Positions 2,810-47,062 of a DNA stretch of 64,000 nt are shown in pieces. Within the stretch, counting starts at the first letter, position 1; each line of letters starts with the position of its first letter. The stretch covers positions 9,362,001-9,426,000 of the forward strand of contig NZ_CP070225.1 of assembly GCF_021631985.1 (NCBI RefSeq), written 5' to 3'. The position numbers and the translations under genes are program-made. Under the pieces are notes generated by a model. It was not told the origin of the DNA and searched no databases. It saw only the letters and a program-made list of their open reading frames with translations. The stretch comes from Sandaracinus amylolyticus. GTDB lineage: Bacteria > Myxococcota_A > Polyangia > Polyangiales > Sandaracinaceae.

Positions 2810-2893
2810 CGCCGCGGCGCCGGGGAAAAGCTCCCCGATCGCGCCCTCGTGATTGCGCGTCGCGCGATGCGCGGTACACGAGCGCGCGAATCC

Positions 2894-3418
2894 ATGGTGT
2901 CCCAAGCATCTCCCCGCGCGCGCACCGGCGACGACGCGGCCCGTGTGCTCGCATCGATCCGGCGCCTCGTCCGCTTCCTCCGTCTCGCCGCGAGCGATGC
3001 CGAGGCGCGCACCGGCATCAGCGCGGCGCAGCTCTTCGTGCTCGAGCGCCTCGTCGACGCGCCCGCGTCGTCGATGAGCGAGCTTGCCGCGCGCACCCTC
3101 ACCGATCCCAGCTCGGTCTCGACGGTCGTGTCGCGCTTGGTCGAGCGAGGCCTCGTCGCGCGCACCCGCGCCGCGACCGACGCGCGTCGCTTCGAGATCG
3201 CGATCACCGCGCGCGGCCGCGCGATCGTGCGGCGCTCTCCGCCCCTCGCGCAGGTGCGTCTGATCCGCGCGATCGAGTCGCTCCCCGCGCGCACCCGCAA
3301 GGACTTCGCGAGCTCGCTCGAGCACCTCGTCACCGCGACCGGGGGCGACAGCCTCGCGCCGCGCATGTTCTTCGAAGACGAGGACGCACCGAAGAAGAGG
3401 TCCCGTGGACGCGCGTGA
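2894..3418 (+). CDS. MarR-family transcriptional regulator
   Basis: A 174-residue protein from the ATG at 2894; the frame stays open upstream to 2849 but that extension is Arg-rich and unlike the family. A helical dimerisation segment is followed by a winged helix-turn-helix: SMSELAARTLTDPSSVSTVVSRLVERGLVARTR is the HTH, and DARRFEIAITARGRAIV is the wing and following helix. This is the canonical MarR arrangement. Its last 14 nt overlap the ClC gene, so the regulator and channel are co-transcribed and likely translationally coupled. That suggests it controls its own operon and a halide or acid response, which is an inference. The C-terminal 30 residues are acidic then basic (EDEDAPKKRSRGR). 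Confidence 0.9.
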   Translation: MVSQASPRARTGDDAARVLASIRRLVRFLRLAASDAEARTGISAAQLFVLERLVDAPASSMSELAARTLTDPSSVSTVVSRLVERGLVARTRAATDARRFEIAITARGRAIVRRSPPLAQVRLIRAIESLPARTRKDFASSLEHLVTATGGDSLAPRMFFEDEDAPKKRSRGRA

Positions 3419-30505: not shown

Positions 30506-33500
30506 ATGGGCGGACGGAACGAGAGCGGAGCGAGATTCCGGGGATGGGCCCGAGGGGCCGCAGCGCTCGCGACCTTCAGCATCTGCTTGATGCACGTCGG
30601 GCATGCCTACGGCGAGGGCATCGCTGCGCTGATGGTCTCCAAATCGATTCCCGAATCGACGGTCGCGGTGATCGACCCCGAGTCGGGCACATCGAGCGGC
30701 GGCAGCACCGGGACCGACGTCCGGATCGCGCCGGGCGACGTGATCCTGTTCCGCATCAACTACTTCGGGATGCCGGACCGCGTCGCGCGCGGCATCAACG
30801 CGTACGTCACCGAGTTCGTCCCGCCCAACACCGAGGTGGTCGGCGTCCGCCTGATCGATCCGACCACGCTGACGGCCTATCCCGGCGGGCGCACGATCAT
30901 CCCGAACCAGCCAGGCCTCGCGCTCGACCGCTGCACCAGCGGCGGCACCTGCGGCACGTACTCGCTCCCATGCACGGCGGGCGCGGGATGCAGCGGTGGC
31001 ACGCGCAGCGTGCCCGAAGGCGCGATCTCGCAGCTCTACGGAGACACCGGCTTCTTCTATTCGACCGACGCGCGCACCCAGCGCACGCCGGCGAACGCGT
31101 TCCTCACCTACTTCAACGGCCAGTCGATGGCGGGCCGCTCGCCGACGTTCGCCGCGAGCATCGCGCCGATCCTCGGGCTCGACGGCGTGACGACGTTCTT
31201 CGGCCACACCACGTGGGACGTCGACCAGATCTACGCGTACGGCATCGCGAACAGCGACGGCAACCGCAGCGGCAACCAGGGCAACGGCGACACGCCCTTC
31301 CAGTACGGCTCGCCGGTCGCCGGCCCCCAGACGCTCTACCTCTACGAGGCCACCGACCTCAGCGTGGGCGGCGCCGATCCGCCGAGCGACGTCGTGTTCA
31401 ACAACGTCGTCGGCCCCTGGCAGCGCATCCGTTACACGGGTGCGCGCATCGGCATCGGCACGACGGCGACGTACTCGAGCGCCGACGCGCGTCGCAGCGC
31501 GGACGCGTCGACGGTCGGCTTCGACGTGCGCCCCGCGAACCCGCTGCCCGCCGCGACGAACGCGGTGCGCGCCGCGATCGGCGAGCTGCGCGCGGGTGAG
31601 GCCGGCATCCTCGAGATCGCGCTCCGCGTGATCGACACGCCGCTCGACCCGGTGATGATGCGCGACGCGAACTGCGCCGAGAGCTTCGGCGGCGGTCCCT
31701 CGAGCAGCAACGCGGGCCAGGACAACCCGTGGGGCTTCGTGATCCCGTCGCCGGGCTGCGTGTTCCTCAACAACCAGTTCGACCTCACGCCGGACCGCAC
31801 GCTCACCGACAACGGCGAGCGCATCACCTACACGCTGCACGGCATGAACCTGTCGACGTTGCCGCAGACGAACGTCGTGGTGACCGCCGACTACGATCCG
31901 AGCCGCGGCGCGCTGGTGCCCGGCAGCGCGACCGGCGCGCCGACGTCGGCGATGTGCGGCACCCGCCCGTGCCTGCGCTGGGTCCTCGGCACGCTCGACC
32001 CCGGCGAGGAGTACACGTTCACGTTCCAGTACGACGTGTCCGGCACCGGCCAGATCTCGCTGGTCTCGTACGGCAACTACACGTCGACCCAGCTCCCCGC
32101 GCCGGGCTTCACCACGCAGGCGGTGACGCTCAGCCGCCCGACGCCGGTGCTGCGCGCGACGTTCACCCAGCCCCAGACCGCGCAGGCCGCGGGCAGCAAC
32201 ATCGTGCTCAGCGGCACGCTGCAGAACTGGGGCACGCAGTCGGCGTCGCTCGATCCCGCGACCGTGACCCTGCCCTCGGGCTGGACCGTGATCGCCGGCC
32301 CGACGCTCGGCACCACGTCGCTCGGGCCGCGCGCGAGCATCACCACGCCGACGAGCACGCCGGTCTCGGTCACGGTGCGCGCGCCCGCGGGCACGGCGGC
32401 CGGGCTCTACGACGTCGATCTCAAGCTCTTCTGGTCGGCGAGCAACTACGGCGGCTCGTTCGAGGCGTTCTTCCCGGCCGTGGTGCAGGTGCCGATCGCT
32501 CAGCCGCGCAGCGATCGCCCGGTGATCGACTGCTCGCGCGTGCTCTCGAGCGCGACGACGATCGTCGGCACGCACACCGAGAGCAACTCGAGCACGGTGG
32601 TGCGCGTCTACTTCAACGGCATCGAGCGCGGCAGCGACGGCTCGACCGCCGGTGGCACCTGGGACGTCGGCACGTTCGGCCCCGGCACCACGTTCGGCTC
32701 GCTCTACGGCGGCCTCGAGGTCACGGCGACCGCGCAGGCGCCCGGTGAGCTCGTCTCGCCGGTCAGCGAGCCCTGCTTCGTCACGCACGTGCCGGGCTGC
32801 AGCGACGGCATCGACAACGACGCCGACGGCGACGTCGACTTCCCGAACGACCCCGGCTGCGCCGGCCCCGCCGACAACGACGAGCGCGACGTGCAGTGCT
32901 CGGACGGCGTGGACAACGACGGCGACGGCCGCGTCGACTTCCCGAACGACCCCGAGTGCAGCAGCCCCGACGACGGCACCGAGGGCGGCTCGCCCGCGTG
33001 CAGCAACGGCGTCGACGACGACGGCGACGGGCGCATCGACTACCCGAACGATCCCGACTGCGCGAGCTCGAGCGATCGCGACGAGGCGACGCGCCGCGCG
33101 TGCAGCGACGGCCTCGACAACGACGGCGACGGCCGCATCGACTTCGGCCTCGGCGCGACCAACGACGAGGGCTGCCACTCGGCGAACGACACCAGCGAGG
33201 CCGCGTTCGTCTACGCGCCCGGCGACGTGCGCCCGCGCATCCTGCTCGTGTTCGACACGTCGGGCTCGATGAACTGGCACACCTGCGAGGACGAGTTCAC
33301 CGGCGGCGACGGCTCCGGTGAGTGCCTCGGCGGCGACGTGGCGTGCGCGACCTGCGGCGCGTCGGGCTGCGGCAACGGCATCGCCGACGACTCGCGCATC
33401 GCGCGTGCCCGCGCCGGCGTCAGCGACGTCGTCGCGGCGTTCGGCGACGTCGAGATGGGCCTCATGCGCTTCCGCCAGCGCGCGACGAGCTTCGCGTGCC

Positions 33501-36500: not shown

Positions 36501-36751
36501 GCAGCGCCGGCGAGTGCGAGCTCGTGGTCGTGCCGCGGCCCGATGCCGGTCCGCCGCTCGACGACGGAGGCACGCGCGTCGACGCGGGCATGGGCGACGC
36601 GGGCGACGGCACCGTGCGCGTGCTCGCGGCCGGCGGCGGCGGATGCCTCTGCACCGCGGCGGGCACCGGTGAGGGCTCGCGTGCTCCGTGGGCGATGGCG
36701 ATGCTCGCCGCGCTCGGTCTCGTCCTCGTCGCGCGTCGGAGGGTCCGATGA
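30506..36751 (+). CDS. Giant secreted MopE-repeat protein with vWA domain and MYXO-CTERM tail
   Basis: A 2081-residue exported protein. Signal peptide about 1-36. Residues to about 760 are strand-rich, Cys-poor domains. Four related CSDGIDNDADGDVDFPNDPGC-like repeats lie at 766-900. A von Willebrand A domain follows at about 910-1170, with the MIDAS motif DTSGS (D917) and a later TDG. Thirteen MopE-type repeats (C-N/D-x-x-D-D/N-D-C-D-x-x-x-D-E/D) run from about 1174 to 1755, then a Cys-rich EGF-like region. The end is GGGGCLC, a hydrophobic helix and ARRRVR, the MYXO-CTERM sorting pattern. MopE-type repeats are annotated as putative metal, often copper, binding. It overlaps the next gene by 4 nt (ATGA). 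A surface anchor role is inferred. Confidence 0.93.
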   Translation: MGGRNESGARFRGWARGAAALATFSICLMHVGHAYGEGIAALMVSKSIPESTVAVIDPESGTSSGGSTGTDVRIAPGDVILFRINYFGMPDRVARGINAYVTEFVPPNTEVVGVRLIDPTTLTAYPGGRTIIPNQPGLALDRCTSGGTCGTYSLPCTAGAGCSGGTRSVPEGAISQLYGDTGFFYSTDARTQRTPANAFLTYFNGQSMAGRSPTFAASIAPILGLDGVTTFFGHTTWDVDQIYAYGIANSDGNRSGNQGNGDTPFQYGSPVAGPQTLYLYEATDLSVGGADPPSDVVFNNVVGPWQRIRYTGARIGIGTTATYSSADARRSADASTVGFDVRPANPLPAATNAVRAAIGELRAGEAGILEIALRVIDTPLDPVMMRDANCAESFGGGPSSSNAGQDNPWGFVIPSPGCVFLNNQFDLTPDRTLTDNGERITYTLHGMNLSTLPQTNVVVTADYDPSRGALVPGSATGAPTSAMCGTRPCLRWVLGTLDPGEEYTFTFQYDVSGTGQISLVSYGNYTSTQLPAPGFTTQAVTLSRPTPVLRATFTQPQTAQAAGSNIVLSGTLQNWGTQSASLDPATVTLPSGWTVIAGPTLGTTSLGPRASITTPTSTPVSVTVRAPAGTAAGLYDVDLKLFWSASNYGGSFEAFFPAVVQVPIAQPRSDRPVIDCSRVLSSATTIVGTHTESNSSTVVRVYFNGIERGSDGSTAGGTWDVGTFGPGTTFGSLYGGLEVTATAQAPGELVSPVSEPCFVTHVPGCSDGIDNDADGDVDFPNDPGCAGPADNDERDVQCSDGVDNDGDGRVDFPNDPECSSPDDGTEGGSPACSNGVDDDGDGRIDYPNDPDCASSSDRDEATRRACSDGLDNDGDGRIDFGLGATNDEGCHSANDTSEAAFVYAPGDVRPRILLVFDTSGSMNWHTCEDEFTGGDGSGECLGGDVACATCGASGCGNGIADDSRIARARAGVSDVVAAFGDVEMGLMRFRQRATSFACPTANATAASGGWAGSGAVCGAYAAGDLLVGFSPENEYSILEWLDGADNYGGTAPAGLDLELRGSGTTPLAGSLASAQAYLADVRTDDPRASCRPYEVILLTDGAETCGGDPIDAAGDLRTAGFPVNVIGFANSPDASTQLNAIASQGGTGSAIFVDDSAALSAAIADIVNGSIRTEICNGGDDDCDTLVDEGFVLYCNRPGGVASPTLCTDPGETVCNGVDDNCDGRIDEGLRNRCGACGAEPPEVCNGVDDDCDGVADENNVCAGCRPEAELCDNIDNDCDGRTDEDLARVCGTDVGACTMGQEVCTAGSWGTCSGTGPATETCDNVDNDCDGVIDGLTRPCGTSVGVCRPGTETCTASVWGACVGAVSGGSEICNTLDDDCDGVVDDGNPGGGGACGSALGECDPGVLNCVAGGLVCSGGTGPTPEACDNQDDDCDGRVDEEVATGASCGQCGAGLMRCVGGTMTCTGDRAPGTEICNGADDDCDGVIDDGNPGGGVTCGESTGACEPGTTQCTGGSIVCTGGTGPATESCNTIDDDCDALVDEGNPEGGAACGGSEAGECERGTEVCVGGDLVCVGESGPQPERCDGLDNDCNGSVDEGNPGGGEACGDDTGECVAGTTICQGGTLVCQGAIEPVEEECNDLDDDCDGVVDDGLSVGAPCGEATGECSPGRLTCVGGEIVCEGGNGPVNEQCNNLDDDCDTRIDEETPSAVCGETEGVCEPGTLTCIGGRQVCTGGTPRGRETCDCEDNDCDMEVDEDPDGTLCPAGSACVSCMCALPCADSEFGRCPAGRVPETNEEGQCYCVAPACDDTACGGETIMNGAAIGCAPGMEDEGIPPCQCENNRCTYACEDVSCIEDGLDCEPFTGTCVPDDCRYFPSMCEDGEICDRTAPDPTCVPDPCATAGCTAEQACRAGVCETSCAEVSCDGGESCTSGECLVNLCADVTCGGEQVCDPTTGDCIASLCGGVVCSSGDLCDPLTGLCRRDRCLDLQCPDGQRCSAGECELVVVPRPDAGPPLDDGGTRVDAGMGDAGDGTVRVLAAGGGGCLCTAAGTGEGSRAPWAMAMLAALGLVLVARRRVR

Positions 36752-39588
36752 GCCGCTTCGTCTCCAGCGCGCAGCTGTTGGCGCTCGTGGTCGTCCTCTC
36801 GTCGTGCACGGTCGAGCCGTACTGCCTCGTCTGTCCCGACGTCGACGGTGGTGAGCCGGTCGACGGGGGGACCGACGCGGGCAGCGACGCGCGGGTCACG
36901 CCGCGCGACGCATCGGCCGACGTGATCGTCGTGCCCGACGGCGGGTGCCTCGAGTTCGAGCTCTGCAACGAGCGCGACGACGACTGCGACGAGCTCGTCG
37001 ACGAGGGGATCGACACCCAGTCGAACCCCGATCACTGCGGCGGCTGCGACATGCCGTGCCCGGTCTACCCGCACGCGTTCGCGGTGTGCGAGGCCGGCGA
37101 GTGCAGCATCGGCGCGTGCGACGTCGGCTACCTCGACCTCGATCCCGCGCAGCCGGGCTGCGAGTACTTCTGCATCCCGAGGGTCACCGACGGGACCGAC
37201 GAGATCTGCGACTTCGAGGACGACGACTGCGACGGCCGCGTCGACGAGGACATCGACTTCGACAACGACCCCGAGAACTGCGGGCACGACGCCGAGACCG
37301 GGCTCGGTCGCTGCGGCAACTTCTGCCGCTCGCCGCGCGCGGCCGGCTCGTGCACCGCGGGCGCGTGCATGCTCGGCGCCTGCGAGCCCGGCTACTACGA
37401 CATCGACAGCAGCGCGACGAACGGCTGCGAGTACCAGTGCACGCCCGCGACCCCGCCGGTCGAGATCTGCAACCTCGTCGACGACGACTGCGACGGCGTG
37501 GTCGACGACGGCGAGCCGGGCGCGGGCGTCGAGTGCGGCAGCGACCTCGGCGCGTGCGGCGCGGTCGACGGCGTGACCATCTGCCGCGCCGGCGAGATCG
37601 TCTGCATGGGCGAGCCCGCGCCGACGGCCGAGACCTGCAACACGGTCGACGACGACTGCGACGGCAACGTCGACGAGCACAACCCCCAGGGCGGACGCGT
37701 CTGCGGCATGAGCACCGGCGCGTGCGAGGTCGGCTACCAGCAGTGCGTGAGCGGCGCCCTGGTGTGCATGGGCCAGGTCGAGCCCACCACCGAGAGCTGC
37801 AACAATCTCGACGACGACTGCGACGGCCGCGTCGACGAGATGAACCCCGAGGGCGGCGCGGCGTGCGGTCCGACGACCGGCGCGTGCGAAGCGGGCGTCG
37901 TGACCTGCACGCGCGGCGCGCTCGTGTGCACCGGCGGCGTCGGCCCGAGCCCCGAGCTCTGCAACAACGCCGACGACGACTGCGACGGCACCGTCGACGA
38001 CGGCGATCCCCAGGGCGGCCAGCTCTGCGGCAGCGACGTCGGTCGCTGCGCGCCCGGCGTGCAGCACTGCCGCAGCGGCGCGCTGGTGTGCGAGGGCGCG
38101 ATCACCTCGACGGCCGAGACCTGCGACGGCGTCGATCAGGACTGCGACTCGAACGTCGACGAGGGCAACCCCGGCGGCGGCGCGACGTGCGGCGAGACCG
38201 CGGGCGCGTGCGAGGCGGGCACCATGCAGTGCCGCGGCGGCACGCTCACCTGCGAGGGCGCGCTCGGTCCCACCGTCGAGCGCTGCAACGGCATCAACGA
38301 CGACTGCGACGCGATGACGGACGAGGGCTTCTCCCTCATGACCGACATCAACAACTGCGGGATGTGCAACCGCGTGTGCTCGTTCCCGAACGCGATTCCG
38401 CGCTGCACCGCGGGCAGCTGCGCGATCGCGACGTGCCGTCCGGGCTTCGTCGATCTCGATCCCGCGCAGCCCGGCTGCGAGTACGCGTGCTCGTACGCCG
38501 GCAACGAGGCGTGCAACGGCCGCGACGACGACTGCGACGGCCGCACCGACGAAGGCCTCACGCCGCCCTCGGCGTTCTGCAACCCCAACGGCGTGTGCAA
38601 CGGCACCGCGGCGACCTGCGGCGGCACGCGCGGCTGGGAGTGCGTCTATCCGGCGACCTACCAGCAGACCGAGCAGCGCTGCGACTCGCTCGACAACGAC
38701 TGCGACGGCAGCATCGACGAGGCGTTCCCGCTGGTCGGTGACCAGTGCAGCAACGGCAGCGGCACCTGCCGCCGGGTGGGCACCTACGTCTGCGCGTCGT
38801 CGGGCACCGCGGTGCAGTGCAACGCGGCGGCGGCGGGCACGCCCGGTGACGAGGCGTGCAACGGCGCCGACGACGACTGCGACGGCGAGGTCGACGAGAC
38901 CGGCGTGAACGATCCCGGCACGCCGTGGCGCGACGCGATCGACGCCAGCGCGATCCCGACCGTCACCTACACCAGCGGCGGCCGCACGATCCGCGTGATG
39001 CGCTACGAGGCCTCGCGCCCCGACGCGACGACGACGAGCGCGGGCTCGCTGAGCACGCTCGCGTGCTCCGCGCCCAACGTGCGCCCGTGGACGAGCGTGA
39101 CGTGGCAGGAGGCCGAGGCCGCGTGCTGCGCGCTCAACGCGAGCGGCACGTGCACCTCGGCGACCAGCGGCTGGCACCTCTGCGGCGCCGAGGACTGGGA
39201 GACGGCGTGCGAGGGCCCGACCGGCAGCTGCGACTGGTCGTACGCCGCGACCTGCAGCGCGTCGCAGCCCGTCGCGTGCAACGGGATGGAGTACGACAGC
39301 GACTCGAGCCTTGCGGGCGATCAGGACGCGCTCGCGACGACCGGCTCGCCGACCTTCTCGTCCTGCTACACCGACTGGGCCGCGGCGGGCCGCGTCTACG
39401 ACATGAGCGGCAACGTTCGCGAGTGGACCTCGACGTCGGCGGGCACCTCGGGCGGCGTGCCGCTCTACCAGGTGCGCGGCGGCTCGTACCAGAGCATCGA
39501 AGAGGGACGCACCTGCGACTTCGACTTCACCGTCGCGCAGCGCACGTTCCGCGCGCCCACCACGGGCTTCCGCTGCTGCATGTACTGA
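36748..39588 (+). CDS. MopE-repeat lipoprotein with C-terminal SUMF1/FGE-like domain
   Basis: A 946-residue lipoprotein (LSSC lipobox, Cys 20). Residues about 70-745 contain eleven MopE-type D-D-D-C-D-G repeats mixed with Cys-rich modules (NCGMCNRVCSFPN). Residues about 751-946 look like a SUMF1/formylglycine-generating-enzyme domain: SVTWQEAEAACCAL, WHLCGAEDWETAC, VYDMSGNVREWTS, RGGSYQS and a final GFRCCMY. Such domains are often non-catalytic or redox-coupled in bacteria. The start overlaps the stop of the giant gene in ATGA, so the two are produced together and probably work together on the surface. Copper dependence is suggested by the family but unproven. Confidence 0.9.
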   Translation: MSRFVSSAQLLALVVVLSSCTVEPYCLVCPDVDGGEPVDGGTDAGSDARVTPRDASADVIVVPDGGCLEFELCNERDDDCDELVDEGIDTQSNPDHCGGCDMPCPVYPHAFAVCEAGECSIGACDVGYLDLDPAQPGCEYFCIPRVTDGTDEICDFEDDDCDGRVDEDIDFDNDPENCGHDAETGLGRCGNFCRSPRAAGSCTAGACMLGACEPGYYDIDSSATNGCEYQCTPATPPVEICNLVDDDCDGVVDDGEPGAGVECGSDLGACGAVDGVTICRAGEIVCMGEPAPTAETCNTVDDDCDGNVDEHNPQGGRVCGMSTGACEVGYQQCVSGALVCMGQVEPTTESCNNLDDDCDGRVDEMNPEGGAACGPTTGACEAGVVTCTRGALVCTGGVGPSPELCNNADDDCDGTVDDGDPQGGQLCGSDVGRCAPGVQHCRSGALVCEGAITSTAETCDGVDQDCDSNVDEGNPGGGATCGETAGACEAGTMQCRGGTLTCEGALGPTVERCNGINDDCDAMTDEGFSLMTDINNCGMCNRVCSFPNAIPRCTAGSCAIATCRPGFVDLDPAQPGCEYACSYAGNEACNGRDDDCDGRTDEGLTPPSAFCNPNGVCNGTAATCGGTRGWECVYPATYQQTEQRCDSLDNDCDGSIDEAFPLVGDQCSNGSGTCRRVGTYVCASSGTAVQCNAAAAGTPGDEACNGADDDCDGEVDETGVNDPGTPWRDAIDASAIPTVTYTSGGRTIRVMRYEASRPDATTTSAGSLSTLACSAPNVRPWTSVTWQEAEAACCALNASGTCTSATSGWHLCGAEDWETACEGPTGSCDWSYAATCSASQPVACNGMEYDSDSSLAGDQDALATTGSPTFSSCYTDWAAAGRVYDMSGNVREWTSTSAGTSGGVPLYQVRGGSYQSIEEGRTCDFDFTVAQRTFRAPTTGFRCCMY

Positions 39589-39914
39589 GCTGATCCGAGA
39601 CGACGAGCGCGGCGCGCATCTGCGTGCCGCGCTCGTTCGCGTTTCACCGCGACCGCGCGCTGATTCTGGAAACGACCCGCCGTGTCCGCGACGCGCGCGG
39701 GTCGATTCTGGAATCGACTGCGCCGTCTCCGAGACTCGCTCGTCGATTTTGAAATCGATCTCTGGGGTCGTTGAGACCCAACGATCGATTCCAAAATCGA
39801 TCTCGGGGTCGCTGAGACCCAACGATCGATTCTGAAATCGATCTCGGGGTCGCTGACACCCAGCTCGCGCGCTCCACGACGGCACGCCCGAGCTCCCGCC
39901 GATCACGACGAGAT
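39589..39914. other. Convergent intergenic region holding the 41-bp repeat array
   Basis: This 326-nt gap between two convergent genes has no gene of its own. About 205 nt of it is the 41-bp tandem repeat array described next. The flanks are plain GC-rich sequence with no clear terminator. Confidence 0.7.
39660..39864. repeat. Tandem 41-bp palindromic repeats (five units, three well conserved)
   Basis: Units begin at 39660, 39701, 39742, 39783 and 39824, each exactly 41 nt. Every full unit carries a dyad of the CGATT-NNNN-AATCG kind and, in the last three, a second GGGTC-N5-GACCC stem. The last two units are nearly identical; the first is degenerate. There are no unique spacers, so this is not CRISPR. 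A related copy lies at 41113-41153 and a similar core sits inside the giant gene near 30644. Confidence 0.9.
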
Positions 39915-41057
39915 TCAGAGGCGGCAGGCGCGGCCGCAGTACCGATTCACCTCGACGAGCGGGTCGTCGTCGCTCGCGGCCGAGCCCCAGTTGGCGAGGC
40001 AGGTCCAGCAGCCGCCGGTGAAGATCGGGCAGGTGGCCCGCCTGTCGGCGAGCGCGCCCGTGCAGCGCGGATCGGTGAAGCGCTGGCAGCACATCGCGAC
40101 GAGGTCGCGGTCCGTGCCCTCCGGGATCGGCTCCGGCGGCGGCTGCGGCGCGGCGGGCGGCTCCGGGGGCGCCGTCGTGGGCGCGGCGATCGCTGCGATC
40201 GGTTCCGGCGCCTCGACCGCGGCGGGCTCGGCCGGGGGTGGCGGCGCGGGCGGCGCGATCACGCGCCACTCGCCGACCGGCGCGGCGAGATCCCCCAGCG
40301 TGTGCTCGCGGATCTCGAGCGCGCCGTCGTGGAGTCGGATCGAGACCACCGCGCCGCCGCGCTCGCACGCGACGAGCCGGCGCCACTCGGTTCCGTCGTT
40401 CGTCGCGCCGATGACGTTCACGGCCGGCGAGCAGCCGGTCGACTGCGCTTCGGCGAGGTGCCGCACGTAGCGCACGCCGCCGTCGGTCGGCTCGAAGATC
40501 CCGAGGCCGAGGCCGCCGTTCCCACCGAGCAGGCGATAGGGCACGACGAGGAGCGTCGTTCCCTCGACGGGCCGCCACCACGCCGGACGGCTCCGCTGCC
40601 CGGTGCCGTCGGCCGAATAGAGCTCGGGGATCCACCTCGCGGCCCCTTCGTCGAGCGCGCTGTCCGTGAGCGCGCGGTAGCCGCTGCGCGTCCCGCGCGA
40701 GATCGGCGTGGTCGCCGCGAGCAGGAGCCGGAAGGTGTCCCACTCCACGCCCTCGATCGGCTCGATCGCCGGACCCGTCGCGGGTGGCGCCGGTGCGAAC
40801 GCGAGCACGTCTCCGACGCCCAGCGGTGCCGACGGTGCCGACGCGATCGCGGGCGGCGGCGCGGCCGGCAGCTCGACCGCGGGCGGCGGCTCGACCGCCG
40901 GCGCCGGAGCGGGCGCTGCGACCGGAGCGGGGGCAGCGACCGGAGCCGGCGGAGCGACCGGTGGAGCGGGAGCCGCGGCGGGCGCGGGCGCCACCGCCTC
41001 CGAGCCACAGCCGACGACGACGAGCGCGAGAGCGACGAGCGCGAGGCGTTCCCCCAT
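39915..41057 (-). CDS. Secreted lipoprotein with Pro/Ala-rich linkers
   Basis: A 380-residue lipoprotein from ATG 41057. Its leader ends VALALVVVGC. Long Pro-Ala linkers (residues about 20-100 and 290-330) flank a folded middle containing WDTFRLLLAATTPISRGTRSGYRAL, LLVVPYRLLGGNGGLGLGIFEPT and a CSPAVNVIGATND block. The C-terminus has a Cys cluster (MCCQRFTDPRCTG, TCPIFTGGCWTCLAN, YCGRACRL) that probably makes disulfides. I recognise no family. GGAAGGAGA precedes the start. The gene is bounded by the palindromic repeats on both sides. Confidence 0.75.
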   Translation of the reverse strand: MGERLALVALALVVVGCGSEAVAPAPAAAPAPPVAPPAPVAAPAPVAAPAPAPAVEPPPAVELPAAPPPAIASAPSAPLGVGDVLAFAPAPPATGPAIEPIEGVEWDTFRLLLAATTPISRGTRSGYRALTDSALDEGAARWIPELYSADGTGQRSRPAWWRPVEGTTLLVVPYRLLGGNGGLGLGIFEPTDGGVRYVRHLAEAQSTGCSPAVNVIGATNDGTEWRRLVACERGGAVVSIRLHDGALEIREHTLGDLAAPVGEWRVIAPPAPPPPAEPAAVEAPEPIAAIAAPTTAPPEPPAAPQPPPEPIPEGTDRDLVAMCCQRFTDPRCTGALADRRATCPIFTGGCWTCLANWGSAASDDDPLVEVNRYCGRACRL

Positions 41058-41099
41058 GCGCGGAGTCTCCTTCCACTGACGGTCGAGAGACAACCCCAC

Positions 41100-41143
41100 C
41101 GAGATTCGCGCCGACCGATTCTAGAATCGCCGACCGAATCTCG
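41100..41143. repeat. Nested palindrome related to the 41-bp repeats
   Basis: Outer arms CGAGATTCG (41100-41108) and CGAATCTCG (41135-41143) enclose a perfect 14-bp palindrome CGATTCTAGAATCG (41116-41129). The sequence reads much like a unit of the 39660 array. It lies between two divergent genes, so it is well placed to be an operator. Confidence 0.8.
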
Positions 41144-41172
41144 GAGACTCGCCGAGAGCCAGGAGGTGAGGC

Positions 41173-41526
41173 GTGAGAATCCCGGTTTCGCGCATCGAGG
41201 CCGCTCTCCGTACGATCGCAGCCCTGTTGGTCCAGAAGGACTACTCGGGTGTCGAGGCGCTGACCGGTGGTGTCCGACTGAAAGAACCGGAGATCGCGCG
41301 CGCCATCGCGGAGTACGGGCGAACCCTCGTGTCGCCTCCGAGCGAAGCGTTCGGCGTTCTCGACGTCGTTCCCATCCGGGCCTCGAAGCCGCCGGCGTTC
41401 TCGGTTCGGTTTCGCCTCTATACGCTCGAGGAGGGTGAGTCGGACTTAGAACTGCAACTGACCCTCATCGAAGAATCGGGGCGCGAGGGCATGAGGGTGG
41501 AGCTCGACGACATCATCGTTCCATGA
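41173..41526 (+). CDS. Small protein of unknown function with a consensus SD
   Basis: A 117-residue protein, GTG start at 41173, preceded by a perfect AGGAGGTG four bases upstream. The sequence alternates an N-terminal helix (RIEAALRTIAALLVQKDYSGVEAL), strands and a final VELDDIIVP. Immunity-type and SMI1-like small proteins have similar length and acidic ends, but no motif supports that. Codon use looks slightly less extreme in GC than its neighbours. It is divergent from the lipoprotein at 39915 and lies next to the nested palindrome. Function unknown. Confidence 0.6.
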   Translation: MRIPVSRIEAALRTIAALLVQKDYSGVEALTGGVRLKEPEIARAIAEYGRTLVSPPSEAFGVLDVVPIRASKPPAFSVRFRLYTLEEGESDLELQLTLIEESGREGMRVELDDIIVP

Positions 41527-41550
41527 CGTGCGGGAGCGCCCGAGGTCGCG

Positions 41551-41576
41551 CGCGCCCTCGTCACTACGAGGGCGCG
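41551..41576. terminator. Bidirectional-type hairpin between converging genes
   Basis: CGCGCCCTCGT, loop CACT, ACGAGGGCGCG form a perfect 11-bp stem between the convergent stops at 41526 and 41598. No T-tract, but the position fits a terminator in both directions. Confidence 0.6.
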
Positions 41577-41597
41577 GTCGCGGGGCCCGATCACGTC

Positions 41598-47059: not shown

Positions 47060-47062
<3 letters not shown>
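46969..47062 (-). repeat. Stop-anchored hairpin repeat, copy 2 (after clpB)
   Basis: On the minus strand this begins TGATCCCTC, where TGA is the clpB stop. It then follows the glgC copy closely, including the outer GCTCG stem (46980-47045), the GGTCCC/GGGACC stem and the GCGCGCGAAGCGCG loop. Differences are scattered single bases. Confidence 0.85.

What the first reader, a model, noticed from the sequence alone, without database searches (positions are those of the whole stretch)
39660..41153. 41-bp palindromic repeat family around a lipoprotein gene, with a core inside the giant gene
Five 41-bp units in tandem hold a CGATT..AATCG dyad and, in three, a GGGTC..GACCC stem. A sixth related unit, part of a larger nested palindrome, lies on the other side of the gene 39915-41057. 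A perfect dyad of the same core occurs at 30644-30659, where it codes for SKSIPEST. The palindromes are long enough to bind a dimeric protein. Their presence both between convergent genes and in a coding region argues against a simple operator and for a dispersed repeat family.
Basis: partly seen in the sequence, partly recalled or inferred. Interest (0 to 1): 0.6.

Follow-up and report, generated by a model that had tools for sequence, protein, structure and literature searches.

The report
Orphan 42-bp array from defence loci
The repeats are a stray copy of a fixed-spacing DNA array that, across the myxobacterial phylum, sits next to an unnamed protein family and, in many loci, beside interchangeable anti-phage defence genes; this array-protein pairing matched nothing in the libraries and papers searched.

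Summary
The repeats are real, but the story lies outside the window. Window 39661-39866 holds five tandem units at 41/42-bp steps. Each unit pairs a CGATTYYRRAATCG palindrome with a second palindrome about 21 bp away. The genome holds at least nine such arrays; the sister species holds more. The 'core inside the giant gene' (30645) is a lone chance match.

Arrays at other loci of both genomes lie beside a protein family (called F here, about 285 aa) that has no Pfam, NCBIfam, PADLOC or PDB match. F occurs in 48 of 377 Myxococcota genomes. Of 46 F loci tested, 30 carry a tandem array of 41-43 bp pitch within 900 bp (27 upstream), against 2 of 154 control genes, both at an F locus my gene caller missed. 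The pitch is constant; the sequence is not. F is often followed by a HerA-like ATPase. Across the array stand diverse defence operons (Gabija, Hachiman, Septu-like, type I RM, Nsn, Mza-like), mostly divergent.

In the sister species, the window's site carries array + F + cargo; the window has lost F. Best reading: a bound control or anchor array of a modular defence locus, here an orphan. Binding and regulation are inferred, not shown.

The parts
39661..39866 (.). Type I array: five units at 42, 41, 42, 41 bp steps, between convergent genes
39661..39674 (.). B palindrome of unit 1, degenerate (TGATTCTGGAAACG)
   Evidence: 12 of 14 to CGATTYYRRAATCG
39681..39695 (.). A palindrome of unit 1 (CGTGTCCGCGACGCG)
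   Evidence: sequence
39703..39716 (.). B palindrome of unit 2
39723..39738 (.). A palindrome of unit 2 (CCGTCTCCGAGACTCG)
   Evidence: sequence
39744..39757 (.). B palindrome of unit 3
39765..39779 (.). A palindrome of unit 3 (GGGTCGTTGAGACCC), perfect 5-bp arms
   Evidence: sequence
39786..39799 (.). B palindrome of unit 4
39806..39820 (.). A palindrome of unit 4 (GGGTCGCTGAGACCC), perfect 5-bp arms
   Evidence: sequence
39827..39840 (.). B palindrome of unit 5
39847..39861 (.). A palindrome of unit 5 (GGGTCGCTGACACCC), imperfect
   Evidence: sequence
41105..41152 (.). Remnant of a type II array (core 41116-41129, second palindrome 41135-41151); nearly identical to a unit of the array at the allelic site of the sister species
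39643..41582 (.). Non-syntenic interval: in the sister species the same site holds a type II array, the F gene and low-GC cargo (about 9 kb)
   Evidence: synteny ends after the terminator of 36748-39588 and resumes at 41583
39603..39636 (+). Terminator-like hairpin of the upstream gene, kept in the sister species; both arrays start just after it
   Evidence: (I9)
39915..41099 (-).
36748..39588 (+). Conserved flanking gene (MopE copper-binding repeats, FGE-sulfatase domain); left edge of the locus in both species
30645..30658 (.). Lone CGATTCCCGAATCG in a coding region: chance match, NOT a member of the family

Best explanation
The array is an orphan copy of a cis element that belongs to a modular defence-associated locus of Myxococcota: [defence operon] - [tandem array, 41-43 bp pitch] - [F gene] - [HerA-like ATPase gene]. 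SHOWN: F genes carry such arrays far more often than control genes; the pitch is conserved while the sequence is private to a locus or a small set of loci; in the palindromic arrays dyads fall on a grid of about 21 bp (two helical turns); across the array lie different known defence systems, mostly transcribed away from it; at orthologous loci the cargo is present, absent or replaced beside a conserved array-F-HerA block; in the sister species the window's site carries array + F + cargo. INFERRED: the array is a double-stranded DNA platform bound on one face by a regularly repeating protein, most likely F or a partner of F. In the divergent gap it would act as a shared control or anchoring element for the F-HerA operon and the linked defence operon. 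The window array, now without F, is a relic of a lost module or a secondary site that F proteins encoded elsewhere in the genome still bind.
For: Association: 30 of 46 F loci have a best period of 41-43 (scan 25-70) with at least 58% identity, against 2 of 154 control genes, both at an F locus missed by the gene caller; Fisher P 1e-21. Further F loci from the phylum-wide search show the same. TRF consensus lengths are only 41, 42 or 43 within 39-45. Dyads: 1.46 peaks per 100 bp against 0.49 shuffled, spacings near 20-22, 41-43, 62-64 and 84. The centre of the B palindrome is YYRR at 22 of 23 array sites that match exactly, typical of indirect readout by a dimer (general knowledge). No G-U excess: 33 G-T against 51 A-C mismatches on the F sense strand, so nothing favours RNA hairpins. 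Gene order: HerA-like ATPase beside F in 10 loci (Pfam HerA_C/DUF87). Cargo across the array: GajA (5e-192), type I RM (twice), PtuA/PtuB-like, HamA+HamB, NsnA+B+C, Z1 helicase + MzaD-like; the first cargo gene is divergent, 69-317 bp from the array, in 8 of 9 loci. Cargo has lower GC than the F side in most of these loci. Allelic sites. Type II palindromes: 37 in the species with the type II F gene, 10 in the window genome, which has none.
Against: No binding, expression or structure data; F has no recognisable DNA-binding domain, and its fold could not be predicted here. Palindromes are clear in the window's family but not significant in many distant F arrays (12 of 32 at p<0.05), so dimer sites are not universal. 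Sixteen of 46 F loci show no array at this threshold. Orphan arrays lie mostly between convergent genes, where promoter control is unlikely. A and B palindromes change independently between orthologous F loci, which does not look like one protein recognising one sequence. The defence census covers hand-picked far-side ORFs, with only ten proteins as control.
Confidence: 0.5

Rival explanations
1. RNA system: the array is transcribed and processed into repeated small RNAs bound by F, with HerA as effector, on the pattern of TIGR-Tas or CRISPR.
For: A strict unit length, repeat sequences private to a locus, two alternating elements per unit, and a protein gene next to the array, all as in TIGR arrays (PMC12045711).
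Against: No variable spacers between repeats within an array; F has no Nop or other match; no G-U asymmetry in the dyads; several arrays sit in a divergent promoter gap of about 0.5 kb; no Rfam match in the window.
Confidence: 0.15
2. Recombination or cassette-exchange site: arrays are where defence cargo is swapped, by site-specific or homologous recombination between arrays that share sequence types.
For: Synteny between the two species stops at or inside the array in three loci, with cargo present, absent or replaced beyond it; shared array types at several places in one genome.
Against: No recombinase is linked; the array edge may simply be the edge of the conserved F-HerA block; the other end of the cargo was not found to be an array; orphan arrays mostly stay in place without cargo (the array in L047 is kept in L078).
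Confidence: 0.15
3. REP/BIME-like dispersed palindromic repeats with a structural or termination role between convergent genes; the link with F would be secondary.
For: Alternating palindromes, intergenic, orphans between convergent genes in 9 of 13 cases, scattered over the chromosome.
Against: No RAYT transposase in either genome; no GTAG or CGTC tag in the array consensus; low copy number; constant pitch with unrelated sequences next to one gene family across the phylum.
Confidence: 0.12
4. Ordinary tandem duplication drift: arrays are neutral satellites that happen to persist near F.
For: Arrays are homogenised within loci and differ between loci; copy number varies between orthologues (5 against 6 units in L047/L078).
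Against: Neutral satellites would not keep a 41-43 bp pitch across unrelated sequences, nor dyads on a two-turn grid, nor sit at F genes in distant families.
Confidence: 0.05

Closest known systems
TIGR-Tas (PMC12045711)
   Same: Tandem array of two alternating elements per unit, unit length fixed, repeat sequences constant within and different between loci, next to a dedicated protein gene.
   Different: TIGR arrays have variable spacers of about 9 nt between the repeats and a Nop-domain protein. Here no variable spacers are seen and F has no Nop match; the units are 41-43 bp instead of yielding 36-nt guides.
RptR operator repeats (PMC12255303)
   Same: Palindromic sites in series in the promoter region of a defence island, often beside type I restriction-modification.
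   Different: RptR is a small repressor with one conserved 6-bp site (TAGCTA) in 9-bp direct repeats; here the sequence differs from locus to locus and only the 42-bp pitch is kept.
REP/BIME elements with RAYT (PMC3733652)
   Same: Short palindromes in alternating, clustered arrangement in intergenic regions, often between convergent genes.
   Different: No GTAG/CGTC tag, no RAYT gene, few copies, and a link to a different gene family.
HerA two-component defence systems (HerA-DUF4297, PMC12198126, PMC11291478)
   Same: A HerA-like ATPase gene paired with a partner gene in a defence context.
   Different: The partner F is unrelated to anything in the libraries searched, no nuclease domain was recognised in it, and an array accompanies it.

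Membership tests
REP/BIME (RAYT-associated) | RAYT (Y1_Tnp, PF01797) gene in the genome | tested here: not met
   No match in G000 or G001; the control rings in 5 of 14 genomes
REP/BIME (RAYT-associated) | Conserved GTAG or CGTC tag at one end of the palindrome | tested here: not met
   The consensus unit of the window array has neither; the CGTC in unit 2 is not at a constant place
REP/BIME (RAYT-associated) | Intergenic palindromes, often between convergent genes | tested here: met
   9 of 13 orphan arrays between convergent genes
TIGR array | Variable spacers between two constant repeats | tested here: not met
   Linkers are as constant as the repeats within arrays
TIGR array | Adjacent Nop-domain (Tas) protein | tested here: not met
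   F gives no Nop match in Pfam, NCBIfam or PDB sequences; by sequence only
TIGR array | Array transcribed and processed to small RNAs | not testable with these tools
   No expression data
Operator array of a transcription factor (RptR-like) | Sites located at the promoter of the regulated operon | tested here: met
   F-linked arrays lie 58-208 bp from F starts and 69-317 bp from divergent cargo starts in the cargo loci; not met for orphans such as the window's
Operator array of a transcription factor (RptR-like) | Regulator with a DNA-binding domain that binds the sites | not testable with these tools
   No binding data; no HTH match in F
F-array family (proposed here) | Tandem units of 41-43 bp | tested here: met
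   Steps 42, 41, 42, 41
F-array family (proposed here) | F gene adjacent | tested here: not met
   None in the window; present at the allelic site of the sister species. Hence 'orphan'.

The most novel reading that the evidence does not exclude
F is the founding member of a new kind of DNA-organising protein: it coats arrays whose only fixed property is a 42-bp pitch, works with a HerA-like ATPase, and switches or guards exchangeable defence operons; dispersed orphan arrays give it further sites over the chromosome.
Probability: 0.3. Interest if true: 0.88.

Novelty: categorically new. Interest (0 to 1): 0.74.

Why it matters
If right, this is a previously undescribed pairing of a protein family with a fixed-pitch, sequence-free DNA array, spread through Myxococcota and serving as the constant part of loci where anti-phage systems are exchanged. 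It gives a handle for finding new defence systems in these genomes (look across the array), raises the testable question of how a constant pitch with changing sequence is recognised and maintained, and explains why a family of palindromes with a two-turn grid is scattered over the chromosome.

Tried and rejected
Coding-region member at 30645: rejected. Ligilactobacillus match in the named genome collection: the 42-bp unit lies in what looks like a coding repeat of an unrelated organism, taken as coincidence. RAYT/REP membership: rejected. Rfam: nothing in the window. F in viral contigs, phages, plasmids: none found with single-protein queries; the alignment query was unusable. G-T/A-C wobble test for RNA hairpins: no signal. 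Palindromes as the universal feature of all F arrays: not upheld; only the pitch is general. F remnants in the window: none. Literature searches gave no description of this array or protein, within an open-access library only.

Full report
OBSERVATION. The window array lies between two convergent genes, 36748-39588 (+) and 39915-41099 (-). Units begin at 39661, 39703, 39744, 39786 and 39827. Each has a 14-bp dyad, consensus CGATTYYRRAATCG (here 'B'), and a second dyad ('A') whose centre is about 20.5-21 bp away. The A sequence changes inside the array from CGTGTCCGCGACGCG and CCGTCTCCGAGACTCG to GGGTC-N5-GACCC. The core is not a chance product: four exact copies in 240 bp, none in 2000 shuffles, 26 in the genome against about 1.4 expected and 0 for the reversed pattern. 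Of the 26, 23 are in arrays and three are solitary with odd centres; the copy at 30645 is one of the three.

THE FAMILY IN THE GENOME. Arrays with the B core lie at about 2.236, 3.870, 5.520, 5.766, 6.733, 9.402 (window), 9.403 (window remnant), 10.097 and 10.455 Mb. A further one with the A palindrome GATGGGTCSGACCCATC lies at 1.709 Mb. Three A types recur: I (GGGTC-N5-GACCC and variants), II (CGAATCTCSGAGATTCG), III (GATGGGTCSGACCCATC). The sister species G001 (one contig of 10.33 Mb, the size published for Sandaracinus amylolyticus DSM 53668, PMC5010890; the identification is my inference) has the same types, and one other family member has a related array. Among 56 relatives the B-core pair pattern is limited to these three genomes.

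A GENE FAMILY WITH THE ARRAYS. Several arrays lie just upstream of paralogous genes of about 285 codons, which I call F. F has no match in Pfam, NCBIfam or PADLOC above noise, nor in PDB sequences. An alignment of 37 members shows a conserved helical-looking core ending in D-x-IAPSL-x-GR and, in many members, a proline-rich tail ending in a G/D-PF motif. F was found in 48 of 377 Myxococcota genomes. When loci of all F genes were examined, arrays appeared beside most of them although their sequences are unrelated to CGATTYYRRAATCG. With an open scan of periods 25-70, 30 of 46 F loci have a best period of 41-43 at 58% identity or more, 27 of them upstream; the control figure is 2 of 154, and both controls belong to an F locus that my gene caller missed. 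Among F loci above the identity threshold the best period is 42 (19), 43 (6), 41 (5), and only twice another value. Loci fetched later from the phylum search repeat the pattern. The constant is the pitch, not the sequence.

DYADS. In F arrays palindrome peaks are three times as dense as in shuffled sequence, with distances near 21, 42, 63 and 84 bp. By consensus, 12 of 32 F arrays and 7 of 12 orphan arrays have significant dyads. So the two-turn palindromic grid is a property of the window's branch and some others, not of all. Mismatches inside dyads show no G-U preference on the F strand (33 G-T, 51 A-C).

NEIGHBOURS. In 10 of the loci examined F is next to a HerA-like ATPase gene. On the other side of the array the DNA is often of lower GC and holds defence genes: Gabija GajA in L050; type I RM genes in L169 and L171; a PtuA-like ATPase with PtuB in L170; HamA and HamB in L172; NsnA, B and C in L175; a Z1 helicase with a DUF4420/MzaD-like protein in L166. 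In 8 of 9 cargo loci the first far-side gene reads away from the array. Ten genes beside orphan arrays gave no PADLOC match at 1e-10. Comparison of the two species shows cargo of 8.6 kb against 1.1 kb at one site and two unrelated cargoes at another, each ending at the array.

THE WINDOW LOCUS. Synteny with G001 runs to the terminator hairpin after gene 36748-39588, stops, and resumes at window 41583. In G001 this interval holds a type II array, an F gene and low-GC cargo that includes an RHS-repeat protein. In the window it holds the type I array, the lipoprotein-like gene, and a type II remnant that matches a unit of the G001 array nearly base for base. F is gone. The genome without a type II F has 10 type II palindromes against 37 in G001, in line with decay after loss, though one comparison proves little. 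Orphan arrays elsewhere can persist: the one in L047 has its orthologue in L078 with 5 against 6 units.

MECHANISM. Shown: pairing with F, constant pitch, defence context, allelic replacement. Inferred: binding by F or a partner on one face of the DNA, and control or anchoring of the divergent operons. I give about 0.5 to this whole reading. RNA, recombination-site and REP-like readings are set out as rivals; none explains the constant pitch with changing sequence better.

NOVELTY. Nothing in the libraries or the open-access papers searched describes the F family or the array. Nearest in form are TIGR arrays, nearest in place the RptR operator repeats; each fails a defining feature. I rate the pairing categorically new and the window copy itself a modest, orphan member of it. 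Main limits: no structure, no binding or expression data, no whole-genome array scan, and a defence census on chosen ORFs.

Noticed in passing
L049:5827-6674 (G000 C1:5765326-5766173): An F gene split over two frames beside an intact array; the sister species lacks array and F at the orthologous place.
   Followed up: partly
L117:1901-2263 and 2866-3080: Only the C-terminal end of an F gene remains, about 650 bp from a 42-bp array of unrelated sequence (TGACCATGCGTATGAGGTCA); looks like a decayed module.
   Followed up: no
L170:8182-11254: Three F genes in tandem behind one array, followed by the HerA-like gene.
   Followed up: no
F proteins, C-terminus (alignment A1): Many F proteins end in a disordered proline-rich tail with a G/D-PF motif near the end, reminiscent of the tail of single-stranded DNA-binding protein.
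   Followed up: no
window near 47060: A 36-bp tandem repeat (about 84% identity) within 900 bp of the gene predicted at 47060, unrelated to the 42-bp arrays.
   Followed up: no
L199:6086-6864 (G001 C1:2052585-2053363): An orphan array of about 17 type III units, the longest seen.
   Followed up: no
L198:11667-12331 (G000 C1:1714666-1715330): Further sequence periodic at 41-43 bp, 5 kb from the type III array at 1.709 Mb; not checked whether coding.
   Followed up: no
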